Assembly: GCA_025928935.1 (NCBI GenBank)
Contig: JAICNB010000014.1
Coordinates: 1-50,968, forward strand
Length of the DNA: 50,968 bases
Direction of reading: 5' to 3'
From: Acidimicrobiia bacterium
GTDB taxonomy: Bacteria > Actinomycetota > Acidimicrobiia > Spongiisociales > ZC4RG35
Part shown: positions 1 through 45,709 of the stretch, one piece after another
Layout of the letters: each line of letters starts with the position of its first letter
Numbering within the stretch: position 1 is the stretch's first letter
The notes under the pieces: generated by a model
The model's input: only the letters and a program-made list of their open reading frames with translations
Told to the model about the DNA's origin: nothing
Database searches by the model: none
Translations under genes and position numbers: made by a program

Positions 1-91
1 AGAAACCGAAAGCCGCCGTCCCGCCGGTCGAGCCGATCGCAATGGCTGCGATCAGAATCGCCCCCAGCACCCGTGCCATCACCCGGGTCAT
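1..91 (-). CDS. Secreted protein, N-terminus only (cut by window edge)
   Basis: Only the first 30 codons are inside the window, read leftwards from an ATG at 91. They encode MTRVMARVLG followed by a hydrophobic Ala/Ile stretch and a Ser-Thr-Gly segment, which looks like a signal peptide. A GGAG lies about 10 bases upstream of the ATG. The gene diverges from the subtilase gene at 323. Mature function cannot be told from what is visible. Confidence 0.5.
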   Translation of the reverse strand, partial: MTRVMARVLGAILIAAIAIGSTGGTAAFGF

Positions 92-322
92 CGTTTGATT
101 CTCCACCATCCCGGTGACAACACCGGAAACGGGAGGAGACCCCCCGACGGCCGGACTGCGAACAGTCCTGGCGATCGGGATGGACGGGCTCAGTGGTCTC
201 GTCGGGGATCGGCCGGCCACCGGGAATCCAGCCGGCATCGACAGGGCCCCGACAGGTAGTTTTCGACACCGTCGAGGGGAGGCGCACCGGGGGGCCGGTG
301 CCCAACGTGAAAGGGGCGAACC

Positions 323-1447
323 ATGGTCGATTGGACCTTCGAATGTCATCCGGCGCGCGCCGACGTTTGCGCAAACATCAAGCCCGGGTGGTCCGAGCCG
401 ACAGAGGCGGAGCCGAAGGAGCCCGAACGGGGAATGACCCACGCCTGCGAGTACATGCCGGGTCAGGCGATCATCAAGGGCCCGCCCGAGATGGCCGAGC
501 AATTCGGCTTCGTACCGGTCGATCCGATCGACATCCTCCCCGGGGAAGCCGTGTTCGAAGATGAGCTGGAAGAGGCCGCGGCCGCTCTCGGGCTCCTCGG
601 CGAGCACGACCGGGGGATCTACAAATTGAGCTCCGAAGTTGCCTCCCTCTTCGAGGCAATCGATCAGGTCCAAGCGGAGGGACAGGACGCCAGCCCGCAC
701 TACATGCTGCGTCCGGCGCCCTTCTGGAGAGGGGGGCCCTACAGCACAGTGAAGCGGCTTGGCTCCAAGTGGGGCTGGGACGATCTGACAATCACCGGGC
801 CGTCCAACGCCGAGCCAGGTGGAACCGTGATCGTCATCGACACCGGTGGTCATGACCTCATCGAACTGGAGGGGTTCGGGATCGAGTGCACGGACAAGGA
901 GTTGGAGCCTGCCCCAGACCCCCAGACGCAGTTCGACCGTCGGTACGTCGGGCACGGCACCTTCGCCGCCACCATCGCCAAGAAGTACAACCCGCACCTC
1001 AACGTAAAGCTGCTTCGTGGGTGGTCGAAGAACGGGATCCTCAGCGAAGCCACCCTTCTGATGGCCTTCATGCGGGCCGATCCGGCCGAGTCGGTGGTGA
1101 GCCTGTCTCTGGGCACCTATCCCTGTGGGCCCAACTACGACCCGCTCGGCGTCGAGGTCGCCCTCACTCTGGCTCGAGGGGGCCGGGTGGTGGCAGCCGC
1201 GGGGAACGACGGCCGCGACCACATCCCGAGGAGGCTCTACCCAGCCTCGCTGTCCAGAGTGGTCGGGGTCGGTGCATATGACACGAGCTGGGGCGAAGCG
1301 TCCTGGTCGAATCGCGGCGAGGCGTGGGCACCGGGCGAGGATGTCGTCTCCTGGTATCACGATGGGAGCAACGGGTCACTCGCTGCGTGGAGCGGCAGCT
1401 CTTTCGCCACCCCGCACTATGCGGCTCGTGTCGCCTCCGGGATCTGA
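323..1447 (+). CDS. Subtilisin-like (S8) serine protease without signal peptide
   Basis: 374 aa. The catalytic triad of the S8 family is present: Asp173 in VIDTGG, His211 in GHGTFAA and Ser360 in SGSSFATP, with the oxyanion Asn295 in AAAGNDG. The first ~165 residues are an acidic, non-hydrophobic extension with no signal peptide or transmembrane segment, so the enzyme probably works in the cytoplasm. ATG 323 is preceded by AAAGGGG. A possible -10 (TAGTTT, 257-262) lies upstream. The next gene, a TPR-CHAT protein, starts 7 bases after the stop (or overlaps it if the ATG at 1419 is used), so the two proteins are probably made together. The family assignment is secure. The target is unknown, but pairing with a caspase-like protein suggests a proteolytic signalling or defence role (inference). 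Confidence 0.92.
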   Translation: MVDWTFECHPARADVCANIKPGWSEPTEAEPKEPERGMTHACEYMPGQAIIKGPPEMAEQFGFVPVDPIDILPGEAVFEDELEEAAAALGLLGEHDRGIYKLSSEVASLFEAIDQVQAEGQDASPHYMLRPAPFWRGGPYSTVKRLGSKWGWDDLTITGPSNAEPGGTVIVIDTGGHDLIELEGFGIECTDKELEPAPDPQTQFDRRYVGHGTFAATIAKKYNPHLNVKLLRGWSKNGILSEATLLMAFMRADPAESVVSLSLGTYPCGPNYDPLGVEVALTLARGGRVVAAAGNDGRDHIPRRLYPASLSRVVGVGAYDTSWGEASWSNRGEAWAPGEDVVSWYHDGSNGSLAAWSGSSFATPHYAARVASGI

Positions 1448-1454
1448 TGGCCGG

Positions 1455-4025
1455 GTGACCGTCGACCTCGCTGGCCTGGTCCGGCTCGCCGAGCAGGACC
1501 CACAGTCTTGTCTTCGTGTCTGTCGGGAGATCCTGGCGGAACCGAGGTCGGATGGCCTCGATGCGCATGCACATCGTGCTCTCGGCATCGCCTACCGCGA
1601 GCTGGGTGAGATCGAGGACTCCATCCGGGAGCTCGAACTGGCTCGGGACCTCTACCGGCATTCGGGCGAAGACATCCACGAGGCCGAGACAGTCATATCC
1701 CTTGCCTGGTCGCTGGCCATCTCGGGTGGTTTGGTCGATGGTGTGGACCTGCTCGACCCGCTGCTGAATCACGCCGACGCCTCGATCCGGGCCCACGCCC
1801 AGGTTCAAAAGGCTGGTCTCATCGCCCGCACGGGTGACCTACGTGGAGCGATGAGTCTGTATGCGGAGGCACAGCAGGTTCTCGATGAGCTGAAGGACAT
1901 GCGCTGGCTTGCCATCCTCCACAGCACGAGGGGTTTGGTGGAGACCTACCTCACCGAGTTCGAGGCGGCGGAAGAGGACCTTGGTGACGCGAGGGACATC
2001 TACGACGAACTGGGTCAGCGCGCAGCCGCAGCGGAGATGACCCACAACCTCGGGTTCGTCGCCGTTCAGCGAGGCGACATCGCCCGTGGGCTTTCCCTGA
2101 TGCTGGAGGCCGAGAGTCTGCTCCAGGGCTCCGGGCTCCCCATCGAGGCCATCGCCTCGGATCGCGCCTACGCCTACATGCTGGCCGGGCTGCCGGCGGA
2201 GGCGTATCGGGAGGCGTCCCGTCTCGCCCGCCGGCTGGGCGCAAAGGGACAAGAGCTGGACCGGGCGGAGGCCCTCTACCTGGCGGCCCGGGCAGCTCTG
2301 GCCAATGGTGATGCCGGCACTGCGGTCGACGTCGCCGACGAGGCGGCCAGGTTGGCGGCCGAACAGGGTCGAACCAGGTGGGAGCTGATGGCCTCACTGG
2401 TGAGGGAGGAGGCATGCCTGCGGGGAGGTTTCCCGGGTGACCCCTCCGAGCTGGTCGCGCTGGCTGGAGCGCTCGCCAACCAGGGGACGCCCGTCGGCGA
2501 AACCCAGGCGTTGGCACTTGCGGCGCTTCGTCATCTCGAGGCAGGCGACGCCGACGCCGCCCACGCGGTGCTCACCTCTCTCCCCTCTTCGGACGGCGAG
2601 GAGACCGAGTTGTCCGTGCAGCTGCTCGTGGCCGTGGCCAGGGCCAGGGTGGCACTGGCCCAAGGGGACCGCCAAGCAGCCGCCACCGTGCTGGCGAAGG
2701 CAGCCGACCTGGTCGACGCGCAGCGATCGATGCTCAGTGCCACCGAGGCCAGAGCGGGGGTGAGCCAGCTTGCCGACGAGATCGCAGTGCTCGGTCTGGA
2801 GGCGATGCACGAGATCGAGCCGTCGATGATGGCCTGGACGGAACGATTCCGCGGCGCATCCCTTCGCGTTGCGCCGGTGGTGATGAGCCCGGACACGGAC
2901 CTGGCCGAGACCCTCGCCGAGCTTCGACCAATCGTGCGTGACCTCATGGCTCCAGGCATGGCCTCCGAGGACACCGCCGACCTTGCGACGGAGGCCCGTC
3001 GTCTCGAGAAGCGGGTACATGACCTGGCGATGGCACGCGAGGGTGACCCAGGGTCTCGAACCTCTTCAGACAGTGTCGAGGATGTGACCGCGGCGCTCGG
3101 TGCTCGTCACATGCTCTACATCTACGACATAGGTGCCCAGACCTACGGCGAGATGATCGGACCGAGCGGGATGGAGAGGGTCGAGCTGGGCGAACCCGAA
3201 CGGCTCAGATTTCTGGCCGGCCATCTGCTGTCAGCACTCCGTCGGGGCTTCATGCGTGGGAGGAGCTCGAGTGTCGTCCACGAGATGATCGCCGAGTTGG
3301 CCGGGCTGCTCCTCGCCCCCCTCGCCGGATCAGGGACCGAGGACGTAGTCGTGCCACCGCCCGATCTGCTTGGTCTCCCCTGGACCGCGATGGCGAAGGC
3401 GATCGACCCGGACCTCCGGATGAGCGTGTCCCCATCGGCGGGATTGTGGGCCCGGGCAGACGGCCAGTCGGCGAGACGAGGACGTTTCGGCGTGGTGGCC
3501 GGCCCCAGGCTGGAGTACGCACCGATGGAGGCGGAACGGGTGGGTGGCGTCTATGCGGGGGCGGACCTGCTCGCAGGGGGTGACGCCACGGTCGAGGCTG
3601 TCCTGAGGACGATGGCACGCTGTGACCGTCTCCATGCTGTCGCCCATACCCGGCTCCGTGACGACAATCCGATGTTCTCCGCCCTGGAGCTCGCTGACGG
3701 GTTCCTCAACCTGTACGACCTCGAAGGCCTGGAGAGCGTTCCAGACACAGTGGTGTTGTCGGCCTGTGACTCGGCCCATGACAACGTGGTCGGGGGCCAT
3801 GAGATGTACGGGCTGACCTCGGTACTCCTTTCGAGAGGTACCCGCTCGGTCATCGCCACGGTGGCGCCCCTTCCCGACTCGGCCGAGTCGGTCGAAACCG
3901 CGGTGAGGATCCACACCGCTCTGAACGAGGGTGCCTCGGCGTCGGCCGCTGTCCGTGACGCACAAAGCGGATTCGCCGCCGGAGTGGTCGACCCTTCCGT
4001 GGCCTTCGTCGCATACGGGGCCTGA
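1455..4025 (+). CDS. TPR-CHAT protein (caspase-fold protease with TPR-like array)
   Basis: About 856 aa from a GTG at 1455. An in-frame ATG at 1419, inside the protease gene, is the alternative start. Residues ~1-500 form repeated helix pairs of TPR type (for example HRALGIAYRELGE and HNLGFVAVQRGDIARG). The C-terminal ~250 residues are a CHAT domain: His731 in HAVAHTRL and Cys771 in VVLSACDSA occupy the caspase-type dyad positions, followed by the usual LLSRGTRSVIATVAP strand. CHAT domains are caspase-family peptidases often fused to TPR sensor regions. No transmembrane segment is seen. The neighbouring S8 protease at 323-1447 shares the transcript. The natural trigger and substrate cannot be read from sequence; the S8 protease is an obvious candidate partner. 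Confidence 0.9.
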   Translation: MTVDLAGLVRLAEQDPQSCLRVCREILAEPRSDGLDAHAHRALGIAYRELGEIEDSIRELELARDLYRHSGEDIHEAETVISLAWSLAISGGLVDGVDLLDPLLNHADASIRAHAQVQKAGLIARTGDLRGAMSLYAEAQQVLDELKDMRWLAILHSTRGLVETYLTEFEAAEEDLGDARDIYDELGQRAAAAEMTHNLGFVAVQRGDIARGLSLMLEAESLLQGSGLPIEAIASDRAYAYMLAGLPAEAYREASRLARRLGAKGQELDRAEALYLAARAALANGDAGTAVDVADEAARLAAEQGRTRWELMASLVREEACLRGGFPGDPSELVALAGALANQGTPVGETQALALAALRHLEAGDADAAHAVLTSLPSSDGEETELSVQLLVAVARARVALAQGDRQAAATVLAKAADLVDAQRSMLSATEARAGVSQLADEIAVLGLEAMHEIEPSMMAWTERFRGASLRVAPVVMSPDTDLAETLAELRPIVRDLMAPGMASEDTADLATEARRLEKRVHDLAMAREGDPGSRTSSDSVEDVTAALGARHMLYIYDIGAQTYGEMIGPSGMERVELGEPERLRFLAGHLLSALRRGFMRGRSSSVVHEMIAELAGLLLAPLAGSGTEDVVVPPPDLLGLPWTAMAKAIDPDLRMSVSPSAGLWARADGQSARRGRFGVVAGPRLEYAPMEAERVGGVYAGADLLAGGDATVEAVLRTMARCDRLHAVAHTRLRDDNPMFSALELADGFLNLYDLEGLESVPDTVVLSACDSAHDNVVGGHEMYGLTSVLLSRGTRSVIATVAPLPDSAESVETAVRIHTALNEGASASAAVRDAQSGFAAGVVDPSVAFVAYGA

Positions 4026-4068
4026 GTCCCAGGCCATTGGGCCCTGACCTCACTGCCATACTCGGCTG

Positions 4069-6243
4069 ATGGTGGGCGATCACCCCGGTGTCACCGAACG
4101 ATGGGCCGGTCTGAGAGCCGACTTCGCACGTGCACGCCTCCCGGGGACGCTGGCCACGGGGTTCGTGCAGGCGATGGTCAACTCCCTGCTCACCGTGGCC
4201 CTGATGAGCCTGATCTTCCAGGGCAGCCTCGAAGGGGCGCTCCCCATCGGGATCGGACTGGGCCTGGCCGGGTCGGCGGTGATAGGAGTCATCGTCGCCC
4301 TGGGCAGCAGCTTTCCCGGCACCTATGCCGGCGTTCAGGACGCCAGCGCGGCGATCCTCGGGCTGAGCGCTGCATCGATCGCGGCAAAGCTGGCCGCTCC
4401 GGAGGCACTCGACACCGTGCTGGCGATGATGGCGGTGACGTCGCTCGCCACGGGCCTGGCCTTCATTCTGATGGGCTACTTCGGCCTCGGCGAGATCGCC
4501 AGATTCATGCCGTTCCCCGTGATCGGGGGCCTGCTCGCCGGAACCGGTTATCTGATCGTTGTCGGCGGGATCGGGATCCTTGGGGTCGGCTCCATCGGAG
4601 ACGTCGACACCCCTGACGCCCTCGGGCTCTTCTGGCCCGGGCTCGTCCTCGCCGCCCTCTTCTTCCTCGCATCCCGACGTCATTGGCCGTCTTTGAGCTA
4701 TTTGTTGTTCTTGGCGGGTGGGATCGTCGGCTTCCATGCGGTGACTGCCCTCGCCGGCATCGACCGGGCCACATCCCTGGCCCGAGGTTGGTTACTCGGG
4801 CCGTTCCCCGCCGGTGGGCTATGGCCGGGTCCGGTCACCGACGCCCTGGCCGGCGCCGACTGGGCCGCCATCGGCGGCGAAACGGCAACGCTGGCCGCCG
4901 TTCTCCTCATCGTCCCGATATCGCTCCTCCTCTACATCAGCGCCATCGAGGTCGAGACCAAGACCGACGTCGACATGAACACCGAGCTCAGGGCCACCGG
5001 GTGGGCCAACATCGCCTCGGGTGCAGTGGGCAGCGCACCCGGGTACCTCTATCTGGCGGACACGCTGATAACCCAGCGCCTGGTCGGAAAGCGACGAGGG
5101 TCGGCCGCGGTGGCGGGTGTCGTCATCCTCGGTGTGATCGTCGTCGGTGGCTCTCTGTTGGAGCTCCTACCCCAGTTCATCGTTGGCGGTCTGTTGCTCT
5201 TCGTCGGCATCGACTTCATGGTCGAGTGGTTGTGGGCGTCGCGCCGGCGCATGACGTCGCTCGACTACGCCCTCATGTGGGCGATCGTCCTGATCATCGC
5301 CACCGTCGGTTTCCTCCCCGGTGTCGGAGTCGGTCTGATCGCTGCGATCGTCCTCTTCGTCGTCCGTTACAGCCGGATCGATGTGGTGAAGCACTCCCTG
5401 ACGGCCCGGGAGCACCAGAGCAACATCGAACGGCCCGCTCACGATGCCGAATACCTGCAGGAGGCGGGCGAATCGGTGCTGATCCTGGAGCTACAGGGCT
5501 TCATCTTCTTCGGGACCGCCAGCCGGATCGTCAAACACGTCCACTCCCACCTCGAACGTGCCGGGTCGGTGCGCTTCGTCATCCTCGACTTTCGGATGGT
5601 GACCGGGGTCGACTCGTCCGCGGTGATGTTGTTGGAGAGAGTCGTGATGCTCGCCCGGGATCACGGGGCGGAGGTCGTCTTCACCGGTATGAGCCCGTCG
5701 CAGCATGTCCAGTTCTCCGAACTTCTCACCGCCTACTCGGACGTTTTCAGGGACGAGCTTGACCTCGACCATGGGATGGCCTGGTGCGAGGACCGCATCC
5801 TGGCCGAGGCCGGGCCACGGCGAGGGGAGGCGCGCTCGCTGCCCGAGGGCCTGGCCACCCAGCTCTCCCCCTATCTGACCCCACGCAACATCCCCGCCGG
5901 GACCCGCCTCATGCAGCAGGGCGACCCAACCCCCGGCATCTACCTGCTGAGGTCGGGACGGGTCACGGTCGTCCTGGAAGGGCCTGATGGGGAGCAGGTC
6001 CGGCTGCGGACCCTGCTGGAAGGGACGGTTTTGGGCGAGATCAGCCTCTATCGGGACGAGCCGTGCACCGCCACCGCCATCACTGACACGACATGTGACG
6101 TGCTCCATCTCACGCCCGAGTCATTCTCCGAGCTGTGCCGTGAGGATCCGGCTGCTGCTGCCGATTTCCACGCCTTCGTGGCGAGGACGCTGGCCGGGCG
6201 GATCAGTCACGCCAACCGGGCCATCCGCGCCCTTCAAGGCTGA
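4069..6243 (+). CDS. SulP-family anion transporter with STAS and cyclic-nucleotide-binding domains
   Basis: 724 aa in three parts. Residues ~25-445 hold 10 or more hydrophobic segments of the SulP/SLC26 type. Residues ~468-560 are a STAS domain (ESVLILELQGFIFF … VDSSAVMLLERV). Residues ~600-705 are a CAP_ED-like cyclic-nucleotide-binding domain, with the phosphate-binding-cassette region around GEISLYRDEPCTATA. SulP proteins carry sulfate, bicarbonate or dicarboxylates; the substrate here is not predictable. The cNMP domain suggests gating or regulation by a nucleotide ligand. No Shine-Dalgarno precedes ATG 4069, but CATACT lies 6 bases upstream, which would fit a leaderless mRNA. The MDR gene at 6252 follows 8 bases after the stop. 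Confidence 0.9.
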   Translation: MVGDHPGVTERWAGLRADFARARLPGTLATGFVQAMVNSLLTVALMSLIFQGSLEGALPIGIGLGLAGSAVIGVIVALGSSFPGTYAGVQDASAAILGLSAASIAAKLAAPEALDTVLAMMAVTSLATGLAFILMGYFGLGEIARFMPFPVIGGLLAGTGYLIVVGGIGILGVGSIGDVDTPDALGLFWPGLVLAALFFLASRRHWPSLSYLLFLAGGIVGFHAVTALAGIDRATSLARGWLLGPFPAGGLWPGPVTDALAGADWAAIGGETATLAAVLLIVPISLLLYISAIEVETKTDVDMNTELRATGWANIASGAVGSAPGYLYLADTLITQRLVGKRRGSAAVAGVVILGVIVVGGSLLELLPQFIVGGLLLFVGIDFMVEWLWASRRRMTSLDYALMWAIVLIIATVGFLPGVGVGLIAAIVLFVVRYSRIDVVKHSLTAREHQSNIERPAHDAEYLQEAGESVLILELQGFIFFGTASRIVKHVHSHLERAGSVRFVILDFRMVTGVDSSAVMLLERVVMLARDHGAEVVFTGMSPSQHVQFSELLTAYSDVFRDELDLDHGMAWCEDRILAEAGPRRGEARSLPEGLATQLSPYLTPRNIPAGTRLMQQGDPTPGIYLLRSGRVTVVLEGPDGEQVRLRTLLEGTVLGEISLYRDEPCTATAITDTTCDVLHLTPESFSELCREDPAAAADFHAFVARTLAGRISHANRAIRALQG

Positions 6244-6251
6244 GGCCCGCA

Positions 6252-7223
6252 GTGAAGGCGGTCGTGTACGACACCTACGGCCCACCGGACGTCCTCCAGC
6301 TGAGGGAGATCGAAGAACCCGAAGTGGGCGACACCGACGTCCTGGTCCGGGTGCGCGCGGCGGCGGCCAACCCGCTCGACTGGTATGCGTTCACCGGGAC
6401 CCCCCTCGTCACCCGGCCCGGCCTGGGTCTGAAAGAGCCGAAGCGGGCAAGACTCGGCGCAGATCTGGCCGGCGTGGTCGACCGCGTCGGCAAGGACGTC
6501 ACCAGGTTCAAGCCCGGGGACGAGGTGTTCGGAACCGGCAAGGGGTCGTTCGCCGAGCTCGTGGTCGTCGGTGAAAGAGGGGCGATCGTCACCAAGCCCG
6601 CCAACCTGTCCTTCGAGGCGGCGGCGGCGGTGCCGGTAGCCGGGCTCACGGCACTGCAGGGTCTGCGGGACAAAGGTGAAGCCAGGGCGGGCCAGCAGGT
6701 CCTGATCAATGGGGCGGCCGGGGGCGTTGGGACATTCGCCGTCCAGATCGCCAAGGTGCTCGACACGGAGGTGACCGCCGTGTGCAGCACCCGGAATGTC
6801 GACCTGGCCCGATCGCTGGGTGCGGACCGGGTCATCGACTACACCAGCCAGGACTTCACCCTCGACAGCCAGCGGTATGACCTGGTGCTCGACATCGCCG
6901 GGAGCCGGCCATGGTCAGAGTTGAAACGGGTGCTCCGCCGCGACGCCACCGTCGTGATCATCGGTGGACCGAAAGCCGGCAGGATGTTCGGGCCCATCGG
7001 CCATCTCGTCGGGACCGCCTTGGCCTCGCTCCCGTCCAGTCAGAAGGCGACGTTCTTCATCTCGAAGGAAGGCGCCGACGACCTCGACACCCTCAGGGAG
7101 ATGATCGAGACCAGCAAGCTCAACCCCGTGGTGGAGAAGACCTACCCGCTCAGCCAGGTCCCCGAGGCCATGACATATCTCGGCACCGGCCACGTGAAGG
7201 GCAAGCTGGTCATCACGATCTGA
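6252..7223 (+). CDS. NAD(P)-dependent zinc-independent MDR oxidoreductase (quinone oxidoreductase-like)
   Basis: 323 aa, GTG start, 8 bases after the SulP gene and so probably co-transcribed. It has the N-terminal GroES-like fold beginning MKAVVYDTYGPPDVLQL, the NAAGGVG-type cofactor motif (INGAAGGVGTFAVQ, ~residues 152-165) and the C-terminal HVKGKLVITI end typical of the medium-chain quinone-reductase branch. The Cys cluster and zinc ligands of classical alcohol dehydrogenases are absent, so it should reduce quinones or enones with NADPH without zinc. The substrate is unknown. Confidence 0.9.
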   Translation: MKAVVYDTYGPPDVLQLREIEEPEVGDTDVLVRVRAAAANPLDWYAFTGTPLVTRPGLGLKEPKRARLGADLAGVVDRVGKDVTRFKPGDEVFGTGKGSFAELVVVGERGAIVTKPANLSFEAAAAVPVAGLTALQGLRDKGEARAGQQVLINGAAGGVGTFAVQIAKVLDTEVTAVCSTRNVDLARSLGADRVIDYTSQDFTLDSQRYDLVLDIAGSRPWSELKRVLRRDATVVIIGGPKAGRMFGPIGHLVGTALASLPSSQKATFFISKEGADDLDTLREMIETSKLNPVVEKTYPLSQVPEAMTYLGTGHVKGKLVITI

Positions 7224-7279
7224 ACCGATCTGTGCTGATCTACCGTGGTCGAGCCGCGTGAAACCTCGGCGACAGACCA

Positions 7280-10200
7280 CTAGAACTCCGGTCCCTCCCG
7301 CTCCCCTCCGGTCGACTCGGTCCTGACGCGGCTGCCGAAGATGGCAGCGGGCTCGAGGTCTTCGGTGGTGTCGGAGCGGGCGGCGACCCAGACGGCGCCA
7401 CGGGCCAGCGAGCCGACCGGCTCGATCGAGCCGTCTTCGTCGCCGGCACCGCTTTCGAACAGCTCCTCTCGGGGCCACCAGGTCCGGTGGTGCCAGGTTC
7501 GCTCGAATGCACCGGTGGCCAGGTGCTCGGGGTCGAAGTAGCGCGGGTCGGCCCCGAAGTCACCCTTGGGTGTGACCTCGGACATGAACTCGAGCAGCGA
7601 TCGGCCCCCGCTCTCACCACCGATCGGCTGGAAGTTCCCCGGATCGGCCAGGATCGGGCCGAAGACCTCCTTCTCCCCGTGAGTCTCCAGCGAGTGGAGG
7701 AACGACGGGTCGTAGACCCCCTCGAAGAACAGCTCCGCCCAGCGCCATCGATCGCCTTTCTCCGGCCTGGCCTCCGCCTCGTATTGAGCCACGGATCTCG
7801 GGTCCTGATCAGGCCGGATCACCTCGGTCGGGTCGTCCGAACCGATGAGCACGGCCTGCTCGTTGCGAAAGGTCTGGACCGAGCCTTCGTATTGCGAGGT
7901 GAGCCAACCCCGCTCCGAAGCGAGCCGCACCGCACGGGTCTCGAATAGCTTCTCCCCTCGGGGTGAGAGGCCGAACTGGCAAACCGACGCCTTGATCACA
8001 CCGAACTCGACCAGGTCGACGCCCGTGTCGGGGACGGCGCCCCCCTTGCCGAAGGGGTACCAGATGAGCCGCGACAACACGGCGGACAGGCCCAGGAACT
8101 GCTCGCGGGCGGCATCGGCCACCCGGTCGGCGGTGAAGGCGGCGTCTACCTGCTCGGCAAGCTGGCGAATCGACTGCCCGTACCAGCGAAGGGCGAGACG
8201 CTCCTGCACCCGTCGCCAGGACACCGCGACGAGCACGAACAGGAGCCAGAACCCGATGGTGCCGCAGACGGGCCACAACAGCTCCCGCAGCTCGGATCCG
8301 GGGGCGGTGGCGTACCACCCTTCGGGTTGGGCGATTGCCCCGGTCACGAGCACCGAGACGTAGGTGAGGACGGTGAGGATGGTGAGACGTGACATCCGGC
8401 CCAGTGCGGGGAGATGCTCCTGATAGGCGGCCAGGGAATAGGCCTGGCCGATCCCGGCCCCGGTCACTATCCCACCCAGCACGGCGGCATAGGTGGCGGG
8501 CTCGGTGGCCGGGTAGCCGAGGAAGGTTATGGCCAGCCCGGCGAACAGGGCCCCGGCCAGCCCACCAAGCAGCATGCCGAGCCAGGTGGGCCCGGTCCTG
8601 ATCGGTGACAACCGCTCGCCCCGCGCCGTCGCCCCCTCCTTCAGCGCCTGCGCGCCGTAGGAGCGGAGCAGGACCAGGACGCTGACACAGGCCAGGGTCA
8701 GGGCGCCGAACAAGATGTTCCGGGTCCAGGTGTCGAGCTCGGTGATCCCCCAGCCCCGCACCGCACCGGTGAGGAGCAGGAGGCTCACCACCAGGGCAGC
8801 GAAGAGCACCGCGCCGGTGATGTGCCAAAAGGCATATCCGGGGGGCCGGTAGTTGGCCAGCGCCGCCATCTGGGTGTCGAGCGTTTCGAGGAGCCGGGCC
8901 ACCGCCGTCCGGTTCGACCTGGCGATGCCCTCGATCCTCGACCCGAGCTTCCCCAGCAGGCTGACCGCTGAGCCGGACTCCGATTCGTCGACGATGTCCT
9001 TGGCCGTCCCCACCAGGGTGTCCGCCGGCCTGGGAGCGAGATAGGCGGCGTCGTTGACCACGGCCCGCTGGCCGTGCACCTCGATAGGGCCCACACCGGG
9101 CGGCGGCTCGCTCCCATCGGCGGTCGACAGGATCAGGCTGCGCATGTCGCGCCACACCGCCTGGTCGATGGAGGGGCCGCCCTGGAGATCGAGTCGGCGC
9201 TCTGCCTGATGCTTCAGATCGGCGATGAGGGCGTCGAAGTCCTCCCCGTCAGCCGAAGGCTGGATCTTCCCCTTCCATACCACTTCGACAACCGACGAAT
9301 CCCCGACCAGGTCCTGCATGGTGCGCCCGGCCAGCTCGGAGAAGTCCTCGAACAGACCCTCGACGGCCCGGCGCGGCAGCGAGATGATGAACCGTCCCAT
9401 CTCCTTCAGGACCAGGGCCAGGGCCCGCAGCGGGCCGAGCTGGTGTCGGGGTGGGGGCTCGGGGTCTCTCACCTCGAAGGCAAGCCGGTCGAACAGGGGT
9501 GCCGAGCGGACAGCCAGATCGGATACCGCCGCAGATGGCGACGGGGCCTCGATCGTGCCCGGGGGCACCGGGAGCCGGCCCTCATGGTCGACGATCTCCT
9601 GCAGGGGCAGGGCGGGGCTCCTGCCTACCCGGACGTAGGAGCGGCTGAGCCGGACCTTGGGATTGTCGCCGAAGATCACCCCGGGGGTCAGACCGTCCAG
9701 GGCGCTTCCCTCCATCCCGCCGAACATGCCCAGGGTCACCGCCGCCTCCGCGGCGATATGACCGGCGAATGAGGGCGTCTCGGGTGAGATCGGCGCGGCG
9801 AAGTGCTGGTCCGACCTCCGGTCCTCCGGGACGACGACCAGGTTGGCGTCGACATGGGTGGAGAAGTAGGAGTCCTCCGGTGCCTCCAGCGTCTCCCAAT
9901 CGGGGAACCAGAGACGCACGATCCGGACCGACGACTTGTTCGGCGCCAGCGCGGTGAGCTGCTCGTGGACGACGTCCCCGATCCGAGCCACCTGCTCGGA
10001 GGCCACCACGTCGACCGGTGTCGCGATGACGGCGACCCGTATCTCGTCGGCCGCCCGGTCACCGATCGAAGCGAACAGCGGGACCTCGGTCTCCCCGAAC
10101 CGGTCGAAGAGGACCCCAGGCCAGGGATTGGCCCGGGTCCCCCTGGAGTCGACGAACCAGAAGGGCCGGATCAGGCCCTGTTCCACCATGGCGCCGAGGA

Positions 10201-10324
10201 TCGTGGCCGCCGCCCAGGCCGGGCCGGACCGATCCCCGACCAGCACCGTCGAGACCGACGTCCGGCGAACGGAGGGCGCTGGACCTCGCTGGGCAGTGCC
10301 TGCAACCCTGGGCTCGCGGGTCAT
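7280..10324 (-). CDS. Large six-TM protein of the tubulin/vWA operon
   Basis: 1014 aa; not a family I can name. The N-terminal ~490 residues are soluble, with alternating strands and helices and motifs such as VLVGDRSGPAWAAATILGAM. Six hydrophobic segments follow at roughly residues 498-523, 535-558, 578-600, 608-632, 646-668 and 680-703. The last ~310 residues are soluble, rich in acidic and aromatic residues, and end in PEF. The ATG (10324-10322) directly abuts the TAG stop of the tubulin-like gene (TAGATG), so translation is coupled. It is the last gene of the five-gene operon and probably the membrane platform for the GTPase, which is inferred from context only. Confidence 0.85.
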   Translation of the reverse strand: MTREPRVAGTAQRGPAPSVRRTSVSTVLVGDRSGPAWAAATILGAMVEQGLIRPFWFVDSRGTRANPWPGVLFDRFGETEVPLFASIGDRAADEIRVAVIATPVDVVASEQVARIGDVVHEQLTALAPNKSSVRIVRLWFPDWETLEAPEDSYFSTHVDANLVVVPEDRRSDQHFAAPISPETPSFAGHIAAEAAVTLGMFGGMEGSALDGLTPGVIFGDNPKVRLSRSYVRVGRSPALPLQEIVDHEGRLPVPPGTIEAPSPSAAVSDLAVRSAPLFDRLAFEVRDPEPPPRHQLGPLRALALVLKEMGRFIISLPRRAVEGLFEDFSELAGRTMQDLVGDSSVVEVVWKGKIQPSADGEDFDALIADLKHQAERRLDLQGGPSIDQAVWRDMRSLILSTADGSEPPPGVGPIEVHGQRAVVNDAAYLAPRPADTLVGTAKDIVDESESGSAVSLLGKLGSRIEGIARSNRTAVARLLETLDTQMAALANYRPPGYAFWHITGAVLFAALVVSLLLLTGAVRGWGITELDTWTRNILFGALTLACVSVLVLLRSYGAQALKEGATARGERLSPIRTGPTWLGMLLGGLAGALFAGLAITFLGYPATEPATYAAVLGGIVTGAGIGQAYSLAAYQEHLPALGRMSRLTILTVLTYVSVLVTGAIAQPEGWYATAPGSELRELLWPVCGTIGFWLLFVLVAVSWRRVQERLALRWYGQSIRQLAEQVDAAFTADRVADAAREQFLGLSAVLSRLIWYPFGKGGAVPDTGVDLVEFGVIKASVCQFGLSPRGEKLFETRAVRLASERGWLTSQYEGSVQTFRNEQAVLIGSDDPTEVIRPDQDPRSVAQYEAEARPEKGDRWRWAELFFEGVYDPSFLHSLETHGEKEVFGPILADPGNFQPIGGESGGRSLLEFMSEVTPKGDFGADPRYFDPEHLATGAFERTWHHRTWWPREELFESGAGDEDGSIEPVGSLARGAVWVAARSDTTEDLEPAAIFGSRVRTESTGGEREGPEF

Positions 10325-13300
10325 CTAGAACTCAGGTGTCGTCTGCGAGGCGCGGACCTGGAGGGCTACCGCCATTCGGTGGAGCTCTTCGTGGATCAGG
10401 TCGGTGGCCCCCAGCCAGGAGTTCTCCGGGCCGATACGGCCCTCGCGACGCTCCTCCTCGGCATGACGTGCGTAGTCCTCGTCGAGTTTGGTCACCAACT
10501 CGGCCAGCGCGGTTGCCCGCTTGCCCGCCTCCTCGAAGTCGATCTGGGCCACCCCGGCCTCCAGCCCGTAAGCGGTGCCCGAGGAGACCCACTCCTCCAG
10601 CACCGGGCTCAACTCCCGGTACTCGCCCATCTCGGCGCCAACGGTGCCCGGGTTGCGACCCAGCTCGATGAGGGTGTGGAAGATCCCCAGCATCTCGTCG
10701 GGCTTGCCGGCGTTGGCTGCGAAGGGGATGGCAAGGGCCAGAGTCTCGAGGAATGCGCCGAGCTGGCGGGGACGGTTCTCCCCCGGTGTGGTGACCAGAG
10801 GCGGCGACTCGATCACCTGCCCACCACGTCCCTTCTCGAGCCTGACCAACGTCGAACCGCTCTCCTGAACGACAGTGAGCAGGCCGAGGAAGCGAGCAAT
10901 GAACCAGCCGCGGACCAGGGCCCGCACCATCGGCATCGGCAGGGGGATGGCCCGTGCCAGCGGCCGGCTCCGGCGCCACTTCCAGAAGTCGCGGAGACGG
11001 GTCGCTCGTGAGGCCGCGGCGTACCCGTCGGCGATGGGATCGATCAGCGACCGGAACACCGCCGGGTGCAGGGCCCCCTCCAACATGCTGTAGACGGAGA
11101 TCCGCCTCACCCGGTCGCTCTGGGTGACGTTGTCGTGGATGCCGTCGGTTCTATCGGCCAGCTTGGAGTCGAGGAACTGGGTCACCCAGCGCTCGAGACG
11201 GTGGTTCTTGAGGGGGATCTCCCCGGGCACGGCATGGGTGGTCAGCACCCGGTCATGAACCTCGCTCATCAGGACCGGGTCGACATGAACCAACGGCTCG
11301 GCCGCCTCGAAGGCCGCCTCCAATGCCGACTGGAAGGCCCTCTCCCGGTCGCGCACAACTGCCGCGGGCACCTTCCGATCCGGCTCCTGGAGATAGGCCC
11401 GCAGGCCCTGGGAGAGGAAGTCGTCGAAATCTGTCCCCTCACGGGTCAGCCAGGCCCTGGCCCGCAGCACGAGCTCGTCGCGCTCGAGGTGGAGGCGGAA
11501 CCGGGCTGGCCGGTCTGGCTCGCCGCCGAGGAGGATCGCCTCGCTCGGCTGCCACTGGTCCACCACCTCGAACATGTCCCGCACCTGGGCTCCCAACCGA
11601 CGGTCGGTGGGCTGGGAATCCTCCAGGTAGTTACCGGTGACGACGGCGTGACGAACGGTGCGCCAACGCTCCGCCGGCGCCCCGTAGTCGACCCCGAGGG
11701 TGGAGGTGAGCAGCTCGTCGAACAACGACGGGAAGCTCTTCGGGTCGATGACCATCGCCACCGTCTTGCCCGGGATCAGGTCGTCGGATACCGCCTGGTC
11801 ACGCTTCGGGTTGTGCCGGGGCCAGCCGTCCACCGGGGCGGCCTCGACATCGGCCGGGTCGAGCTTGCGCTGGAGATCGCCCAGGGCCAGCCTGACCGAC
11901 TCCATCAGCGGCATCACCACCGACTCGTCGAAGTCGAGAAGGAGGGCGCGAGCGATGAAGCGGGATTTCTCCTCCATCCGCTGGAAGACGAGGGTGTCCA
12001 CCGCCTGAGCTGCGGCCATCCGCACCGCCTCGTGCTCGGAACCGAGCTGGCCGCTGAGCTCCCCGAAGGCGGACTGGACGTTGGAGCGGACGTGTGAGGA
12101 GAAGCTCTCGAACTCGATCCGCTCGTTCTCCAAGTCGTCACAGGCAGCCCGTATCTCGTCCCTCACCAGCTCGAGCAGCTCGGCTACGACCGGCAGCCCG
12201 TAGCCGGAGGCGATGCTCCCCGTCTCCCGCAGCAGCCGGCCGGTGACCTCCTTGGTCCACACCCGAGCGCGCTCCCGGATCCTGGTGTCGTACCGTTCGT
12301 TCTCGCCGGGTGCGAGCAGCTCAGCCTCCTCGACGATGGCGGTGAGCCACTCGTCGATCCGGCCCTTGGCCCCCACGTTCTCCACGGCGCCCTGATAGAC
12401 CTTCTCGGCCAGGCCGCCGGTGATCACTTGCCGCTCTCGCAGTGGGAGGGCGATCGCATCGACCACCTGATCCTGGCCCCGCTCGGTGATCTCGACGTTC
12501 TTGAGGTACCCTGTGAGCCGGTCGGCGGCCAGCTCCTGGGCGATCACGTCCGGGGTCAGCCCCTCGTATCGGTCCAGACCCTCGGTGGCGAGACGATGGC
12601 CGTTGACCAGCGTGTCGACGGCATCACGGACGATGCGCCGCTCGGAGTACTGCTTGAAGCGGTCCACACCGAGGTCCACCTCGGCGTAACCGAGGCCCTG
12701 GAGAGTCCCGACATAGGGCGGCTCCATCAACATGTGCATCGGGCCGCCACGGTCGCCATAGGTCCCTGCGCTGCTCTGCCAGTTCGCCGCGGTGTAGACC
12801 ACGAAGTCTTCCTGGACCTGGGGGTCGGTCATGACCGCGGAGAGACATCGGCCCATCACCCGATAGACGTCGGTCTGGTCCCCGAACACCACACCGCTGG
12901 TGTTGGCATGGCCGACGAGGAACGAGAACGCCGGGCCGCTGCGGGAGATCTCACGCTCCTCCCCGGCGACGGAGACCCGCCCACCGGCGTAGACCCCACC
13001 GAGGAGCTCGGCGAGGGCGGCCGCCGAGTTGGGATGGACCCCGGCCCTGGCCCCGGCGGCGAGGCTCTGGAAGACGTCGGCTGCGTAGAGGATGCCGAAG
13101 GAGTTGTCGAGCCACTGCTCGCCCTCGGCCCGGAGCATGTCGGCGATGTCGAGGAAGAGGCCCGCCCCGGTTCCACCGGCCAGGGAGGAGACGATCATCA
13201 GCACCGGCTCGCCTCGCTCCTCGTAGGTCCCCGAGCCCTCCTCGTCGGCGGTGGCGCGGAGCCGTTGCAGCTCGCCGAGGGCATCGGCGGTGCGTAGAGC

Positions 13301-13714
13301 CGTGATCTTGCCCTGGATGGCGGTGTGGATCCGCTCCTGCTGATCGAGCCCGAGGACCCGCCCGATGGCCCGGTACTGGCCTGCCCCATGGGCGATGGGG
13401 ACGTTCATGAAGTCGGGGTCGACCCACCATCCGTCGAAGTTGGTCTGCTTCCTGGTCAGCCGCTCCACCACCGTTGCGAATGGCACCCCGTCCCGATGCA
13501 GCGACATGTACTCGATCGGCGGGAGAAGCTCGGGGCGGCCGGGGAGGAGCGGCGCCTCCTGGGTCGATGGTGTGTCGATGTGGAGGAATTGCCAGCCCTG
13601 GGGCAGGCCGGAGGCCCAGCCGATCTCACCGAGCCACTCACCGAGGGACTGCTTGAGATAGCGGATCGTCTTCCCCCCGGACCCTCCGAGGCCAATCACC
13701 AGAAAAGATCTCAT
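10325..13714 (-). CDS. Tubulin/FtsZ-like GTPase
   Basis: 1129 aa from ATG 13714. The N-terminus FLVIGLGGSGGKTIRYL is the glycine-rich first nucleotide loop of the FtsZ/tubulin fold, and SSLAGGTGAGLFLDIADML (~residues 175-195) is the tubulin signature (GGGTG[TS]G-like). About 800 residues of mostly helical sequence follow, far beyond FtsZ length; this resembles the large tubulin-like proteins annotated as Tubulin_2. It ends in PEF, as does the next protein. The reading frame stays open upstream to 14062, but that stretch lies inside the vWA gene and is Arg/Pro-rich shadow sequence. The ATGA overlap at 13711-13714 fixes the start. Expected to bind GTP and perhaps polymerise under the membrane (inference). 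Confidence 0.88.
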   Translation of the reverse strand: MRSFLVIGLGGSGGKTIRYLKQSLGEWLGEIGWASGLPQGWQFLHIDTPSTQEAPLLPGRPELLPPIEYMSLHRDGVPFATVVERLTRKQTNFDGWWVDPDFMNVPIAHGAGQYRAIGRVLGLDQQERIHTAIQGKITALRTADALGELQRLRATADEEGSGTYEERGEPVLMIVSSLAGGTGAGLFLDIADMLRAEGEQWLDNSFGILYAADVFQSLAAGARAGVHPNSAAALAELLGGVYAGGRVSVAGEEREISRSGPAFSFLVGHANTSGVVFGDQTDVYRVMGRCLSAVMTDPQVQEDFVVYTAANWQSSAGTYGDRGGPMHMLMEPPYVGTLQGLGYAEVDLGVDRFKQYSERRIVRDAVDTLVNGHRLATEGLDRYEGLTPDVIAQELAADRLTGYLKNVEITERGQDQVVDAIALPLRERQVITGGLAEKVYQGAVENVGAKGRIDEWLTAIVEEAELLAPGENERYDTRIRERARVWTKEVTGRLLRETGSIASGYGLPVVAELLELVRDEIRAACDDLENERIEFESFSSHVRSNVQSAFGELSGQLGSEHEAVRMAAAQAVDTLVFQRMEEKSRFIARALLLDFDESVVMPLMESVRLALGDLQRKLDPADVEAAPVDGWPRHNPKRDQAVSDDLIPGKTVAMVIDPKSFPSLFDELLTSTLGVDYGAPAERWRTVRHAVVTGNYLEDSQPTDRRLGAQVRDMFEVVDQWQPSEAILLGGEPDRPARFRLHLERDELVLRARAWLTREGTDFDDFLSQGLRAYLQEPDRKVPAAVVRDRERAFQSALEAAFEAAEPLVHVDPVLMSEVHDRVLTTHAVPGEIPLKNHRLERWVTQFLDSKLADRTDGIHDNVTQSDRVRRISVYSMLEGALHPAVFRSLIDPIADGYAAASRATRLRDFWKWRRSRPLARAIPLPMPMVRALVRGWFIARFLGLLTVVQESGSTLVRLEKGRGGQVIESPPLVTTPGENRPRQLGAFLETLALAIPFAANAGKPDEMLGIFHTLIELGRNPGTVGAEMGEYRELSPVLEEWVSSGTAYGLEAGVAQIDFEEAGKRATALAELVTKLDEDYARHAEEERREGRIGPENSWLGATDLIHEELHRMAVALQVRASQTTPEF

Positions 13715-16080
13715 GCTTCCCCAGTCCTTTCCATGTCGGCGACCATATTCATGGCCGTGAACTCGGCTGCGATCAGGCCGAGTGAGTCGTCGATGATCTC
13801 GGCGGCGATGCGGCTGGCATCGGCGCCACGGGCAGTTCGGATGTCGAAGAGCAAAACGCCATGTGCCTTCTGGCTGGTTCCCTCTGCCAACCGCTCCAGT
13901 TGGGTTTGGGAGAGGCCAATAACCACCAGCGGGCCCAGTGCATCCCGGGCCCGTCCCCGGTAGGAGCCTTCGGTGACGAGGGTCCGGCCGGGGAGACCGG
14001 GCCCCTGATGTGCCCCGATGACGTCGGTGCCCATGCCGATGCGGGCGTAGGGAGGCAGCCATGGGATCGGCGACACCATCCGTTGCATGCGGAAACTCCC
14101 TGCATCGAGACGGGACGGGGTACGGCGGGGCAGTCGGAATTGGCTGTCGACCGGAGCCTCGGCCAGGGACATGTCGAGCTCGCCGTACTCGGTGGGTGAC
14201 ACCTCAACGGCGAATTCGGCGTACCTGACCCGGTTCCGTCGCGGGTCGGGGATGCGGCCGATGAGCCGGTTGACCCCGTAGAGGATCGCCCAGAGCAGGG
14301 CCAGCATCAGCAGCATCAAACCGACGACGATCACCGCAACAAGAGCGGGATTGGCCCTGGGTGTCACCTCGAAGTCGATGGCGAGCAGCCCTTCCTCGGC
14401 ACGATCCGGGCTCGTGGCCGGGACCGAGCGGGTCGGGATCTCGAGCACCTGATGGGCGAACCCGGAGCGGTCGAGGGTGAGGTCAATGGTCACGGTCTGC
14501 ACCGGTCCCGCCTCCATCTGGAGGCAATCCGCGCCGGCGAACCCGGCGGTGGCGTTGATGACCTCCCCGTTGGCGGCGGTCATGGCGGCTCCTGGCGGGG
14601 TCAGACAGAGCTCGCCCCCGTCCCTGGGATCGACCTCGAGGTCCACGGCGAAGGGCCCGAGCCCCTCCCCGCTGACCGGACCGGGCTGGGTGACGATGGC
14701 CGGGGCATTTATCTGCTCGTTGAGGGGGAAGGTCTGGGTGACGCTCTGGGTGAGGCCCGGGCCCGAGACCATCTCGACTCGGACGTCGAAGCTCCCGGCG
14801 ATCGGCAAGGCGGACACCCTGATGGACCACCCGGTCCCGTCGGGGGCACTCACCTGGCCGTTCTCCGAGTCGACCTGGATGCGACCCAGGGCCTCACCCT
14901 CGAGACGACCGTGAGGCCCGTCGGCGACCACCAGGAACTCGGCCGGCTCGTCCTGATAGAGAGATGGCGCCGAGCTCTGAACGACCGGGGTCGCAGCCTG
15001 GGCCGCCACCCAGACACACGCCTCGGACACACCGGACATCTCGACCGAGAATGGAGCACCCACCGGGCGGGCCAGAACCACGTTCATCCCCGAATCGGCG
15101 TCGCTCGTCGTCGACGGATCGGGCAGGGTCGTGGCGGCCAGGTCTGGCGGGCTGCCCGCGCTCCCCCGCGTGATGAGCCGGACCTCGGTAGCCAGTTGAT
15201 ACGGCGCAGGGCCGGCGTCCACCACCGCCTCGTTCACCATCAGGTTGCCGTTGACATCAGGTGCGGCATCGGTCAACTGATAGGCGCCGACCTGGGAGGC
15301 GCACGCCATGATGAAGGGGAGTCGGCTGGCGTCGTCGACCGACTGGAACGACCCGTTACCCGGCCCGCATTGAAGACTGGGATCGCCCCCCATCCCCTGC
15401 AACACCCGGCGGCTCGCATCGTCGAGCTGGCTCTCGGTGCCGAGCAGCATGATCTGGGCACTGACCCCGGCCGCTCCGAGCTGGTCGGCGTAGCCGCCGG
15501 CGTCGCAAATGAGGCCAGGCATCAGGGCCTCGGCCTCGGTCACGTTGGCCTGGGTCACGAGCTCGGGGAAGTAGTTCCGCTCCAGGCCGTCCGCGAGGTA
15601 GTCCTCATCGAGGTCGTGCTCCCCGTCGGTGAACCAGAACAAGATCTGACAGGAGGCGTCCGACCCGGCGAAGGCGCCGGCAGCACCCTCCATGGCGTAG
15701 ACGTAGTCGGTGTGGAGCTGGTCCTCGACCGATCCGACGGCGTCGACCCGCTCCAGTGCGGTTGCCAGGGTGTCCTGGTCCAACACCATCCACTCGCCAG
15801 GTCGATAGTCCTGGCCGAAGCCGGCCACCTGGATCTCCACCTGACTGACCCGGTCGGCCAGAGAGGCGTAGGAACGAACGACGGCCCGGGCCCCGGTCAG
15901 CCGCTGGTCGTCGGGATCGGTCCGGGCCAAAGAGCCGGATTGGTCGATGAGGAGCAGCACCTGCACGGCCGCGTTCTCGTCCACGACGCAATCGCCGGGT
16001 AGCTCCGGTGTCTGGGCCAGGGCGACACCGGCCGGCAGCAGGGCCAGACCGGCGAGAGCCGCGAGGAGGAGACGCCTCAC
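13711..16080 (-). CDS. Membrane-anchored vWA-domain protein
   Basis: 789 aa from a GTG at 16080, set by the GTGA overlap with the preceding gene. A cleavable signal peptide (RRLLLAALAGLALLPAGVALA, then QTPELPGD) is followed by a von Willebrand A domain with the MIDAS motif DQSGS and a later FTDGEHD. Beta-rich segments come next, then a single hydrophobic helix (ALVAVIVVGLMLLMLALLWAI) at ~residues 575-600 and a ~190-residue cytoplasmic tail. The topology is therefore an extracellular metal-dependent adhesion-type domain joined through the membrane to a tail that could meet the tubulin-like GTPase. An open frame continues to 16335 but is overlapped by the next gene and lacks coding character. 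Confidence 0.88.
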   Translation of the reverse strand: MRRLLLAALAGLALLPAGVALAQTPELPGDCVVDENAAVQVLLLIDQSGSLARTDPDDQRLTGARAVVRSYASLADRVSQVEIQVAGFGQDYRPGEWMVLDQDTLATALERVDAVGSVEDQLHTDYVYAMEGAAGAFAGSDASCQILFWFTDGEHDLDEDYLADGLERNYFPELVTQANVTEAEALMPGLICDAGGYADQLGAAGVSAQIMLLGTESQLDDASRRVLQGMGGDPSLQCGPGNGSFQSVDDASRLPFIMACASQVGAYQLTDAAPDVNGNLMVNEAVVDAGPAPYQLATEVRLITRGSAGSPPDLAATTLPDPSTTSDADSGMNVVLARPVGAPFSVEMSGVSEACVWVAAQAATPVVQSSAPSLYQDEPAEFLVVADGPHGRLEGEALGRIQVDSENGQVSAPDGTGWSIRVSALPIAGSFDVRVEMVSGPGLTQSVTQTFPLNEQINAPAIVTQPGPVSGEGLGPFAVDLEVDPRDGGELCLTPPGAAMTAANGEVINATAGFAGADCLQMEAGPVQTVTIDLTLDRSGFAHQVLEIPTRSVPATSPDRAEEGLLAIDFEVTPRANPALVAVIVVGLMLLMLALLWAILYGVNRLIGRIPDPRRNRVRYAEFAVEVSPTEYGELDMSLAEAPVDSQFRLPRRTPSRLDAGSFRMQRMVSPIPWLPPYARIGMGTDVIGAHQGPGLPGRTLVTEGSYRGRARDALGPLVVIGLSQTQLERLAEGTSQKAHGVLLFDIRTARGADASRIAAEIIDDSLGLIAAEFTAMNMVADMERTGEA

Positions 16081-16496
16081 AGCTCTCCGGTCCAGACTCG
16101 GGCGATGTAGAAGGCGAGACGCAGGCCGTGCCATCCGATGGCGAGGGCGAGGGAGACGAGCAACCCGGCCCACCCGATGAGGCTGGGGCGCCAGGCCGGC
16201 TCGTGCCATCGGCCGCCGGCACTCTGCCGCTCGTAGCGGAACACGGCGAACGCCGGCAAGACGAGGACGAGGGTCACCACGAGGGCGACGATGGACCTGC
16301 TGAACGAGGCTGTCATGCCCGGGGCGAGATTCCACGGCTCACCCAGGGCGAGGAAGGCGATGAGCAGGGCGCTGAGGGCCAGGACCGCCACCGAGGCATA
16401 GAACCAGCGGCTTGAGGTGGCCACCCTCGACCTTGCCGCGGACCGCCCGGTCGTGGTGGTGGCGCCGCCGCCGGGAATGGGGACGTTGCTGCTCAC
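16077..16496 (-). CDS. Small three-TM protein
   Basis: 139 aa. A Thr/Arg-rich N-terminus of ~28 residues precedes three hydrophobic segments (FYASVAVLALSALLIAFLAL, SIVALVVTLVLVLPAFAVF and LIGWAGLLVSLALAIGW). No family recognised. It overlaps the zincin gene by 4 bases (16493-16496) and the vWA gene by 4 bases (16077-16080), so its product is made in step with both and is probably a subunit of the same envelope complex. Confidence 0.8.
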   Translation of the reverse strand: MSSNVPIPGGGATTTTGRSAARSRVATSSRWFYASVAVLALSALLIAFLALGEPWNLAPGMTASFSRSIVALVVTLVLVLPAFAVFRYERQSAGGRWHEPAWRPSLIGWAGLLVSLALAIGWHGLRLAFYIARVWTGEL

Positions 16497-42399: not shown

Positions 42400-42431
42400 A
42401 TTGTGCGCCTCCCCCTTAGCGATGTCTTAAG
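42400..42431 (-). promoter_or_regulatory. SARP-type direct repeat and -10 before the 67-aa gene
   Basis: On the minus strand: CTTAAGACATCGCTAAGGG (42431-42413), with hexamers TTAAGA and CTAAGG at an 11-bp period, then seven bases, CACAAT (42405-42400), seven bases and the ATG. It overlaps the TAA stop of the regulator. It matches 17 of 19 bases of the site at 45710-45728, with the same distance to the -10. Confidence 0.65.
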
Positions 42432-45648: not shown

Positions 45649-45709
45649 CTGTCTCCTGCGGAGGAGGGGGGCGTATTTAACCGAACTTGTCAAGGGCGGG
45701 CCGATTCAC

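What the first reader, a model, noticed from the sequence alone, without database searches (positions are those of the whole stretch)
323..4025. Intracellular subtilase paired with a TPR-CHAT caspase-like protein
Both proteins have intact catalytic residues (S8: D173/H211/S360; CHAT: H731/C771), neither has a signal peptide, and the genes are 7 bases apart or overlapping. Two different protease folds in one cytoplasmic unit with a TPR sensor resembles bacterial defence or death modules in which one protease activates another. The ~165-residue acidic N-terminus of the subtilase could be a propeptide removed by CHAT.
Basis: partly seen in the sequence, partly recalled or inferred. Interest (0 to 1): 0.72.

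Follow-up and report, generated by a model that had tools for sequence, protein, structure and literature searches.

The report
Protease pair from sigma-factor signalling module
Two neighbouring bacterial genes for two different kinds of protein-cutting enzyme turn out to be half of a widespread four-gene set that also holds a gene-switching sigma factor and a small partner protein; in this genome the two halves sit on separate contigs, and how they work together has not been tested.

Summary
In detail: an intact S8 subtilase (323-1447) lies 7 bp before, or overlaps, a TPR-CHAT cysteine-protease gene (1455-4025). Catalytic residues are conserved in essentially all homologues. The pair is not free-standing. 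In 72 CHAT-anchored contig stretches, 65 have the S8, 59 an ECF-type sigma factor, 60 a ~150-aa CarboxypepD_reg-like protein and 54 all four. This matches the gene context already reported for sigma group ECF54, so the kind is known in print, though uncharacterised. New here: (1) the S8 N-terminal region is predicted to hold an ordinary subtilisin propeptide, which weakens "removed by CHAT"; (2) a candidate promoter, GTATCA-N16-CTC, clusters at the sigma loci (hold-out 45 hits, 1 in a reversed control) but is absent in front of the window pair; (3) in this genome the sigma gene and its partner sit on another contig that lacks the CHAT+S8 found there in both same-genus genomes, while one of those genomes has lost the window-locus pair, leaving a scar. 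Best reading: the protease half of an ECF54-type signalling module, possibly acting in trans. Which protease cuts what is unknown. A defence or death role has no direct support here.

The parts
323..1447 (+). S8 subtilase, 374 aa; triad D173/H211/S360
   Evidence: PF00082 E 4.7e-15; triad conserved
539..715 (+). Predicted propeptide domain of the subtilase (residues 73-131), modelled as beta-alpha-beta-beta-alpha-beta
   Evidence: AlphaFold2 model on A4, mean pLDDT 74 but about 50-85 in this stretch; top VIA-align rows are unautoprocessed pro-subtilisins aligned from residue 73, Z 22.5-23.4
1455..4025 (+). TPR-CHAT cysteine protease, 856 aa (alternative in-frame start ATG 1419)
   Evidence: PF12770 E 1.5e-22, TPR_MalT and TPR_12 below cut-off
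3489..3971 (+). CHAT catalytic domain as matched by Pfam (residues 679-839), dyad H731/C771
   Evidence: dyad invariant in 13 of 13, 100 of 102
164..3944 (.). Stretch absent from the matching locus of a same-genus genome (G001:C63), which keeps a decayed CHAT 3' end
   Evidence: blastn: window 3-163 (82%) and 3945-9179 (87%) match, the rest does not; remnant read

Best explanation
The pair is the protease half of an ECF54-type signalling module: TPR-CHAT cysteine protease, S8 subtilase with a normal propeptide, an ECF-type sigma factor, and a ~150-aa CarboxypepD_reg-like protein (called fam2 here) encoded right after the sigma gene. SHOWN by sequence: the four-gene association, conserved catalytic residues, a shared promoter-like motif at the sigma loci. 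INFERRED: the TPR part binds a signal or partner and switches on the CHAT protease; CHAT and S8 proteolysis acts on fam2 and/or the sigma factor and so sets how much free sigma reaches RNA polymerase; free sigma then drives GTATCA-N16-CTC promoters around its own locus. I favour fam2 as the substrate (an anti-sigma-like partner), but nothing here shows that it binds sigma or is cut. In this genome the pair would have to act in trans on the only close sigma+fam2, on contig C55.
For: CHAT-anchored stretches outside the model-building set: S8 53 of 56, sigma 46 of 56, fam2 47 of 56, all four 43 of 56 (all: 65, 59, 60, 54 of 72). Sigma-anchored loci, named organisms: fam2 68 of 80, CHAT 49, S8 44, all four 41. 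fam2 lies directly downstream of sigma, often overlapping it, and resembles PF13620 in 18 of 21 at E<=0.5, best 5.5e-5, below Pfam's cut-off. A review reports carboxypeptidase, subtilase and CHAT proteins in ECF54 context and proposes proteolytic control (PMC8999054, passages). Motif: hold-out 45 vs 1 reversed control, 33 within 3 kb of sigma; own genome 5 of 16 matches within 3 kb at the sigma locus. One close sigma in the genome (4e-88; next 4e-16) and one CHAT. Reciprocal absence of S8+CHAT between this genome and G001.
Against: No motif in front of the pair: nothing within 1-322 scores above zero; the best in the window (9.8, at 1354, inside the S8 gene, wrong spacing) is at the noise level of the whole window. 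The pair is very divergent (nearest CHAT 35% identity) and its S8 is among the longest branches, so a changed role is possible. Reciprocal loss is one case in draft genomes; the third genome's window locus is broken by a contig end. Sigma+fam2 also occur without CHAT or S8 (16 of 80, some cut by contig ends), so they may work without the proteases. The review says the group lacks an anti-sigma factor. Assignment of this sigma to ECF54 rests on gene context; no ECF group model was run.
Confidence: 0.55

Rival explanations
1. The proteases keep the sigma factor off by degrading it directly; fam2 is an accessory or adaptor, not an anti-sigma factor.
For: This is the proposal in print for ECF54 (PMC8999054, passages read), which says no anti-sigma factor is involved.
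Against: fam2 is more tightly tied to sigma (68 of 80) than CHAT (49) or S8 (44) is, and sits in the position typical of anti-sigma genes (general knowledge); sigma+fam2 loci exist without proteases, which direct degradation alone does not explain.
Confidence: 0.22
2. A defence or regulated-death unit in which TPR-CHAT, on sensing infection, activates the S8 (or the reverse), with cell damage as output.
For: Two intact proteases of different folds side by side; TPR-CHAT Csx29 serves in type III-E CRISPR systems (PMC10028731, passages); the CHAT domain is weakly alike to Csx29/TPR-CHAT chains (E 2e-4 to 0.02).
Against: No defence neighbours in the window; the stable partners are sigma and fam2; predicted autoprocessing propeptide; no RAMP-family match in the genome.
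Confidence: 0.13
3. The window pair is an orphan with a role of its own, unrelated to the sigma+fam2 on contig C55.
For: Unlinked, divergent, no motif upstream.
Against: It is the only CHAT in a genome that keeps a lone close sigma+fam2, and same-genus G001 keeps the other pair and has lost this one.
Confidence: 0.1

Closest known systems
ECF54 sigma-factor group context (reported in PMC8999054, citing Huang 2015 and Casas-Pastor 2021; the latter was not held, the former was not looked up)
   Same: Sigma factor with a carboxypeptidase-type (fam2), a subtilase and a CHAT protein nearby; found here in Actinomycetota
   Different: Here S8+CHAT are unlinked from sigma+fam2 and very divergent; the sigma was not run against an ECF54 model; I suspect a partner role for fam2 where the review says no anti-sigma factor
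Type III-E CRISPR Craspase: Csx29 (TPR-CHAT), Csx30, CASP-sigma
   Same: TPR-CHAT protease encoded with an ECF-type sigma factor and a further protein; Csx30 inhibits the sigma and is cut by Csx29 (PMC10028731, passages)
   Different: No RAMP-family protein in this genome; fam2 (~150 aa) was not compared with Csx30 (565 aa in that paper); an added S8 protease; CHAT similarity only weak
Pro-subtilisins (Tk-subtilisin, subtilisin E)
   Same: Propeptide and catalytic domain in the same order and arrangement in the model, triad conserved
   Different: No secretion signal found; about 70 further N-terminal residues modelled at low confidence
[quoted passage not shown]
   Same: Caspase-type protease, TPR protein and ECF sigma factor in one neighbourhood
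   Different: Other protein families; no S8 or CHAT mentioned in the passages seen

Membership tests
ECF54-type module | ECF-type sigma factor of the group | tested here: inconclusive
   TIGR02937 sigma70-ECF over its cut-off for the C55 sigma, but no ECF54 model was available; in this genome it is unlinked from the pair
ECF54-type module | Carboxypeptidase-type protein in context | tested here: inconclusive
   PF13620 in 18 of 21 fam2 proteins at E<=0.5, the member shown below Pfam's cut-off; on C55 next to sigma, not next to the pair
ECF54-type module | Subtilase in context | tested here: met
   S8 in 65 of 72 CHAT-anchored stretches and in the window
ECF54-type module | CHAT-domain protein in context | tested here: met
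   CHAT in 49 of 80 sigma-anchored loci and in the window
ECF54-type module | Sigma factor controlled by proteolysis | not testable with these tools
   proposed, not demonstrated, in PMC8999054
Type III-E CRISPR Craspase | Cas7-11/gRAMP (RAMP-family) effector | tested here: not met
   PF03787 0 of 1 in own genome, rings in 4 of 14 control genomes
Type III-E CRISPR Craspase | Csx30 substrate | not tested
   no Csx30 sequence was compared
CHAT peptidase (PF12770) | CHAT domain over cut-off with His/Cys dyad | tested here: met
   80.8 bits, cut-off 24; dyad 100 of 102
S8 subtilase (PF00082) | Domain over cut-off with Asp/His/Ser triad | tested here: met
   56.1 bits, cut-off 21.8; triad
Anti-phage defence system | Protection from phage | not testable with these tools
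   no experiment; no defence neighbours

The most novel reading that the evidence does not exclude
A CRISPR-free counterpart of the Csx29/Csx30/CASP-sigma circuit, widespread in Actinomycetota: TPR-CHAT senses an unknown signal and cuts fam2, a sigma-holding partner, freeing the sigma factor to fire GTATCA-N16-CTC promoters, while the S8 is a second protease that clears or resets it. One S8+CHAT pair per sigma+fam2 suffices, even unlinked, so sister species could lose opposite copies.
Probability: 0.28. Interest if true: 0.75.

Novelty: new member of a known kind. Interest (0 to 1): 0.48.

Why it matters
If the reading holds, TPR-CHAT proteases control sigma factors well outside CRISPR, which would bear on where the type III-E circuit came from. 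The module occurs in cultured actinobacteria (Amycolatopsis, Catenulispora, Nocardioides), and the candidate promoter gives a ready reporter: its activity with each protease, fam2 or sigma removed would place all four in order.

Tried and rejected
Rejected: defence island (PADLOC on 16 window proteins); CATRA and multicellular conflict systems as the home of the pair (PMC7159879 passages: subtilisin once, CHAT 0, CATRA 0); CHAT-dependent propeptide removal as the leading idea; mis-binned contig (neighbouring genes 89% and 93% identical in same-genus G001; composition ordinary). A second discovery-set motif (CATCGG-N16-TGC) was not followed; I suspect conserved sigma coding sequence upstream of fam2, unchecked.

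Clustering of genes behind motif sites outside the module found no shared output (77 sites, largest group 5). fam2 gave no solved-structure match better than E 0.17. The model of the S8 N-terminus is informative from residue 73 on; 1-72 are mostly low confidence.

Limits of counts: order-level loci (16 of the 72) helped build the models; the 40 phylum and 16 class stretches were picked by me from the places listed, mostly the best-scoring. L032 and L033 are two contigs of one locus. The 80 sigma loci are the best of 538, and several repeat contigs seen under G handles. One search's 176 vs 23 motif sites include training loci and repeats; one search is the cleaner test, though the exact pattern had first been seen in the full set. 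Absence of a description in print was judged only from searches; Casas-Pastor 2021 was not held and Huang 2015 was not looked up.

Full report
OBSERVATION. The window is a whole contig (G000:C4) of a 3.08-Mb, 144-contig genome estimated 98% complete. It is the only CHAT match in the genome at E 0.001. The contig begins 322 bp upstream, so earlier neighbours are unseen; an open frame with an apparent signal sequence (by eye) runs off the left end on the other strand, and a SulP-type transporter follows 43 bp downstream.

CONSERVATION. Of 60 related genomes, 15 have a CHAT match and 7 an S8 match, own genome included. Gene calls around them showed two further recurring families: an ECF-type sigma factor and a ~150-aa protein, fam2. 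Models of the four families, built from those loci, were run on all loci. Outside the building set, S8 is in 53 of 56 CHAT-anchored stretches, sigma in 46, fam2 in 47, all four in 43. Over all 72: S8 65, sigma 59, fam2 60, all four 54; S8 and CHAT are divergent in 39, in line with S8 first (as in the window) in 15, CHAT first in 9, convergent in 2. Starting instead from sigma (80 best of 538 matches in named genomes): fam2 68, CHAT 49, S8 44, all four 41, sigma alone 12, sigma+fam2 only 16. CHAT is in 56 of 396 genomes of the phylum sample.

LITERATURE. A 2022 review (PMC8999054; passages and a table excerpt read) states that group ECF54 has conserved carboxypeptidase, subtilase and CHAT proteins in context and that proteolytic control without an anti-sigma factor was proposed. 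fam2 resembles the CarboxypepD_reg domain, so I take the module here to be of that kind; the match is by context, not by a group model. Strecker et al. 2022 (PMC10028731; passages) show that Csx29, a TPR-CHAT protease, cuts Csx30, which inhibits the ECF-like CASP-sigma. That is a functional analogy. The CHAT domain here is weakly similar to those chains, and the genome has no RAMP-family match.

THE SUBTILASE N-TERMINUS. With 39 aligned sequences the model reaches pLDDT 74. The best structural matches are unautoprocessed pro-subtilisins aligned from model residue 73 to 374 (Z 22.5-23.4, 260-268 residues, 3.3-3.8 A), against about 200 residues for mature subtilisins. Residues 73-131 are therefore most simply a subtilisin propeptide. 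Self-processing follows from knowledge of that family, not from a test here; confidence in this stretch is moderate (about 50-85).

PROMOTER MOTIF. A spaced-word count upstream of module genes gave GTATC(A)-N-CTC(T). Found again from 144 stretches of the phylum set alone, and counted in 69 other sigma loci, GTATCA-N16-CTC occurs 45 times against 1 for the reversed pattern, 33 of them within 3 kb of sigma. In this genome there are 16 matches (15 for the reversed control), 5 of them within 3 kb at the C55 sigma locus and none on the window contig. A weight-matrix scan agrees: five strong sites at C55, none in front of the pair. Known motifs of the group could not be looked up.

GENOME COMPARISON. 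Contig C55 holds the only close sigma (4e-88, next 4e-16) and fam2. It aligns with same-genus G001 on both sides of the place where G001 has CHAT+S8; about 4.2 kb are missing here, with 142 bp in their stead. G002 has the same four genes, split over two contigs. Conversely, G001's copy of the window locus aligns at window 3-163 and 3945-9179 but lacks the rest; its last CHAT codons survive as a decayed remnant, so the ancestor most likely had the window pair and G001 lost it. Each of the two genomes thus keeps one S8+CHAT pair and one sigma+fam2. It is a single case in draft genomes; the G002 window locus is cut by a contig end. The two pairs are old relatives (about 30% identity for CHAT).

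MECHANISM. Shown: association, intact active sites, a shared motif near sigma, reciprocal absence. Inferred: TPR sensing, CHAT activation, fam2 and/or sigma as substrate, S8 as a second protease, action in trans. The order of the two proteases is open.

VERDICT. The pair is real and conserved, and belongs to a kind already noted in print but, as far as my searches went, not studied. The defence reading is not excluded, but nothing here favours it. Confidence is 0.55 for the module reading and lower for any particular cut.

Noticed in passing
window 7280-16335 (-): Three long genes in a row: a 1014-aa protein without Pfam match, a Tubulin_2 protein (4.2e-42) and a frame with a sub-threshold VWA_2 match.
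   Followed up: partly
window 42427-45693 (-): 1088-aa AfsR-like regulator with AAA, TPR and BTAD domains; its TPRs probably gave the weak second 'CHAT' model hit.
   Followed up: partly
L029, L031, L033, L024 (S8 genes): Several homologues carry tandem repeats such as YLGNPA/YLGNPV or FFGNPS between propeptide region and catalytic domain; the window S8 lacks them.
   Followed up: no
L039 7776, 8781, 9502, 10585, 10762: Five GTATCA-N16-CTC sites within 3 kb, in front of small genes of unknown function and of fam2.
   Followed up: partly
L113 10064-12496: sigma+fam2 followed by an 810-aa protein with only a weak match to the CHAT model; perhaps another architecture.
   Followed up: no
L134 6302, L158 2511: Motif in front of related genes with a CNLSCGHCYSSSG-type (radical-SAM-like, by eye) stretch.
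   Followed up: no
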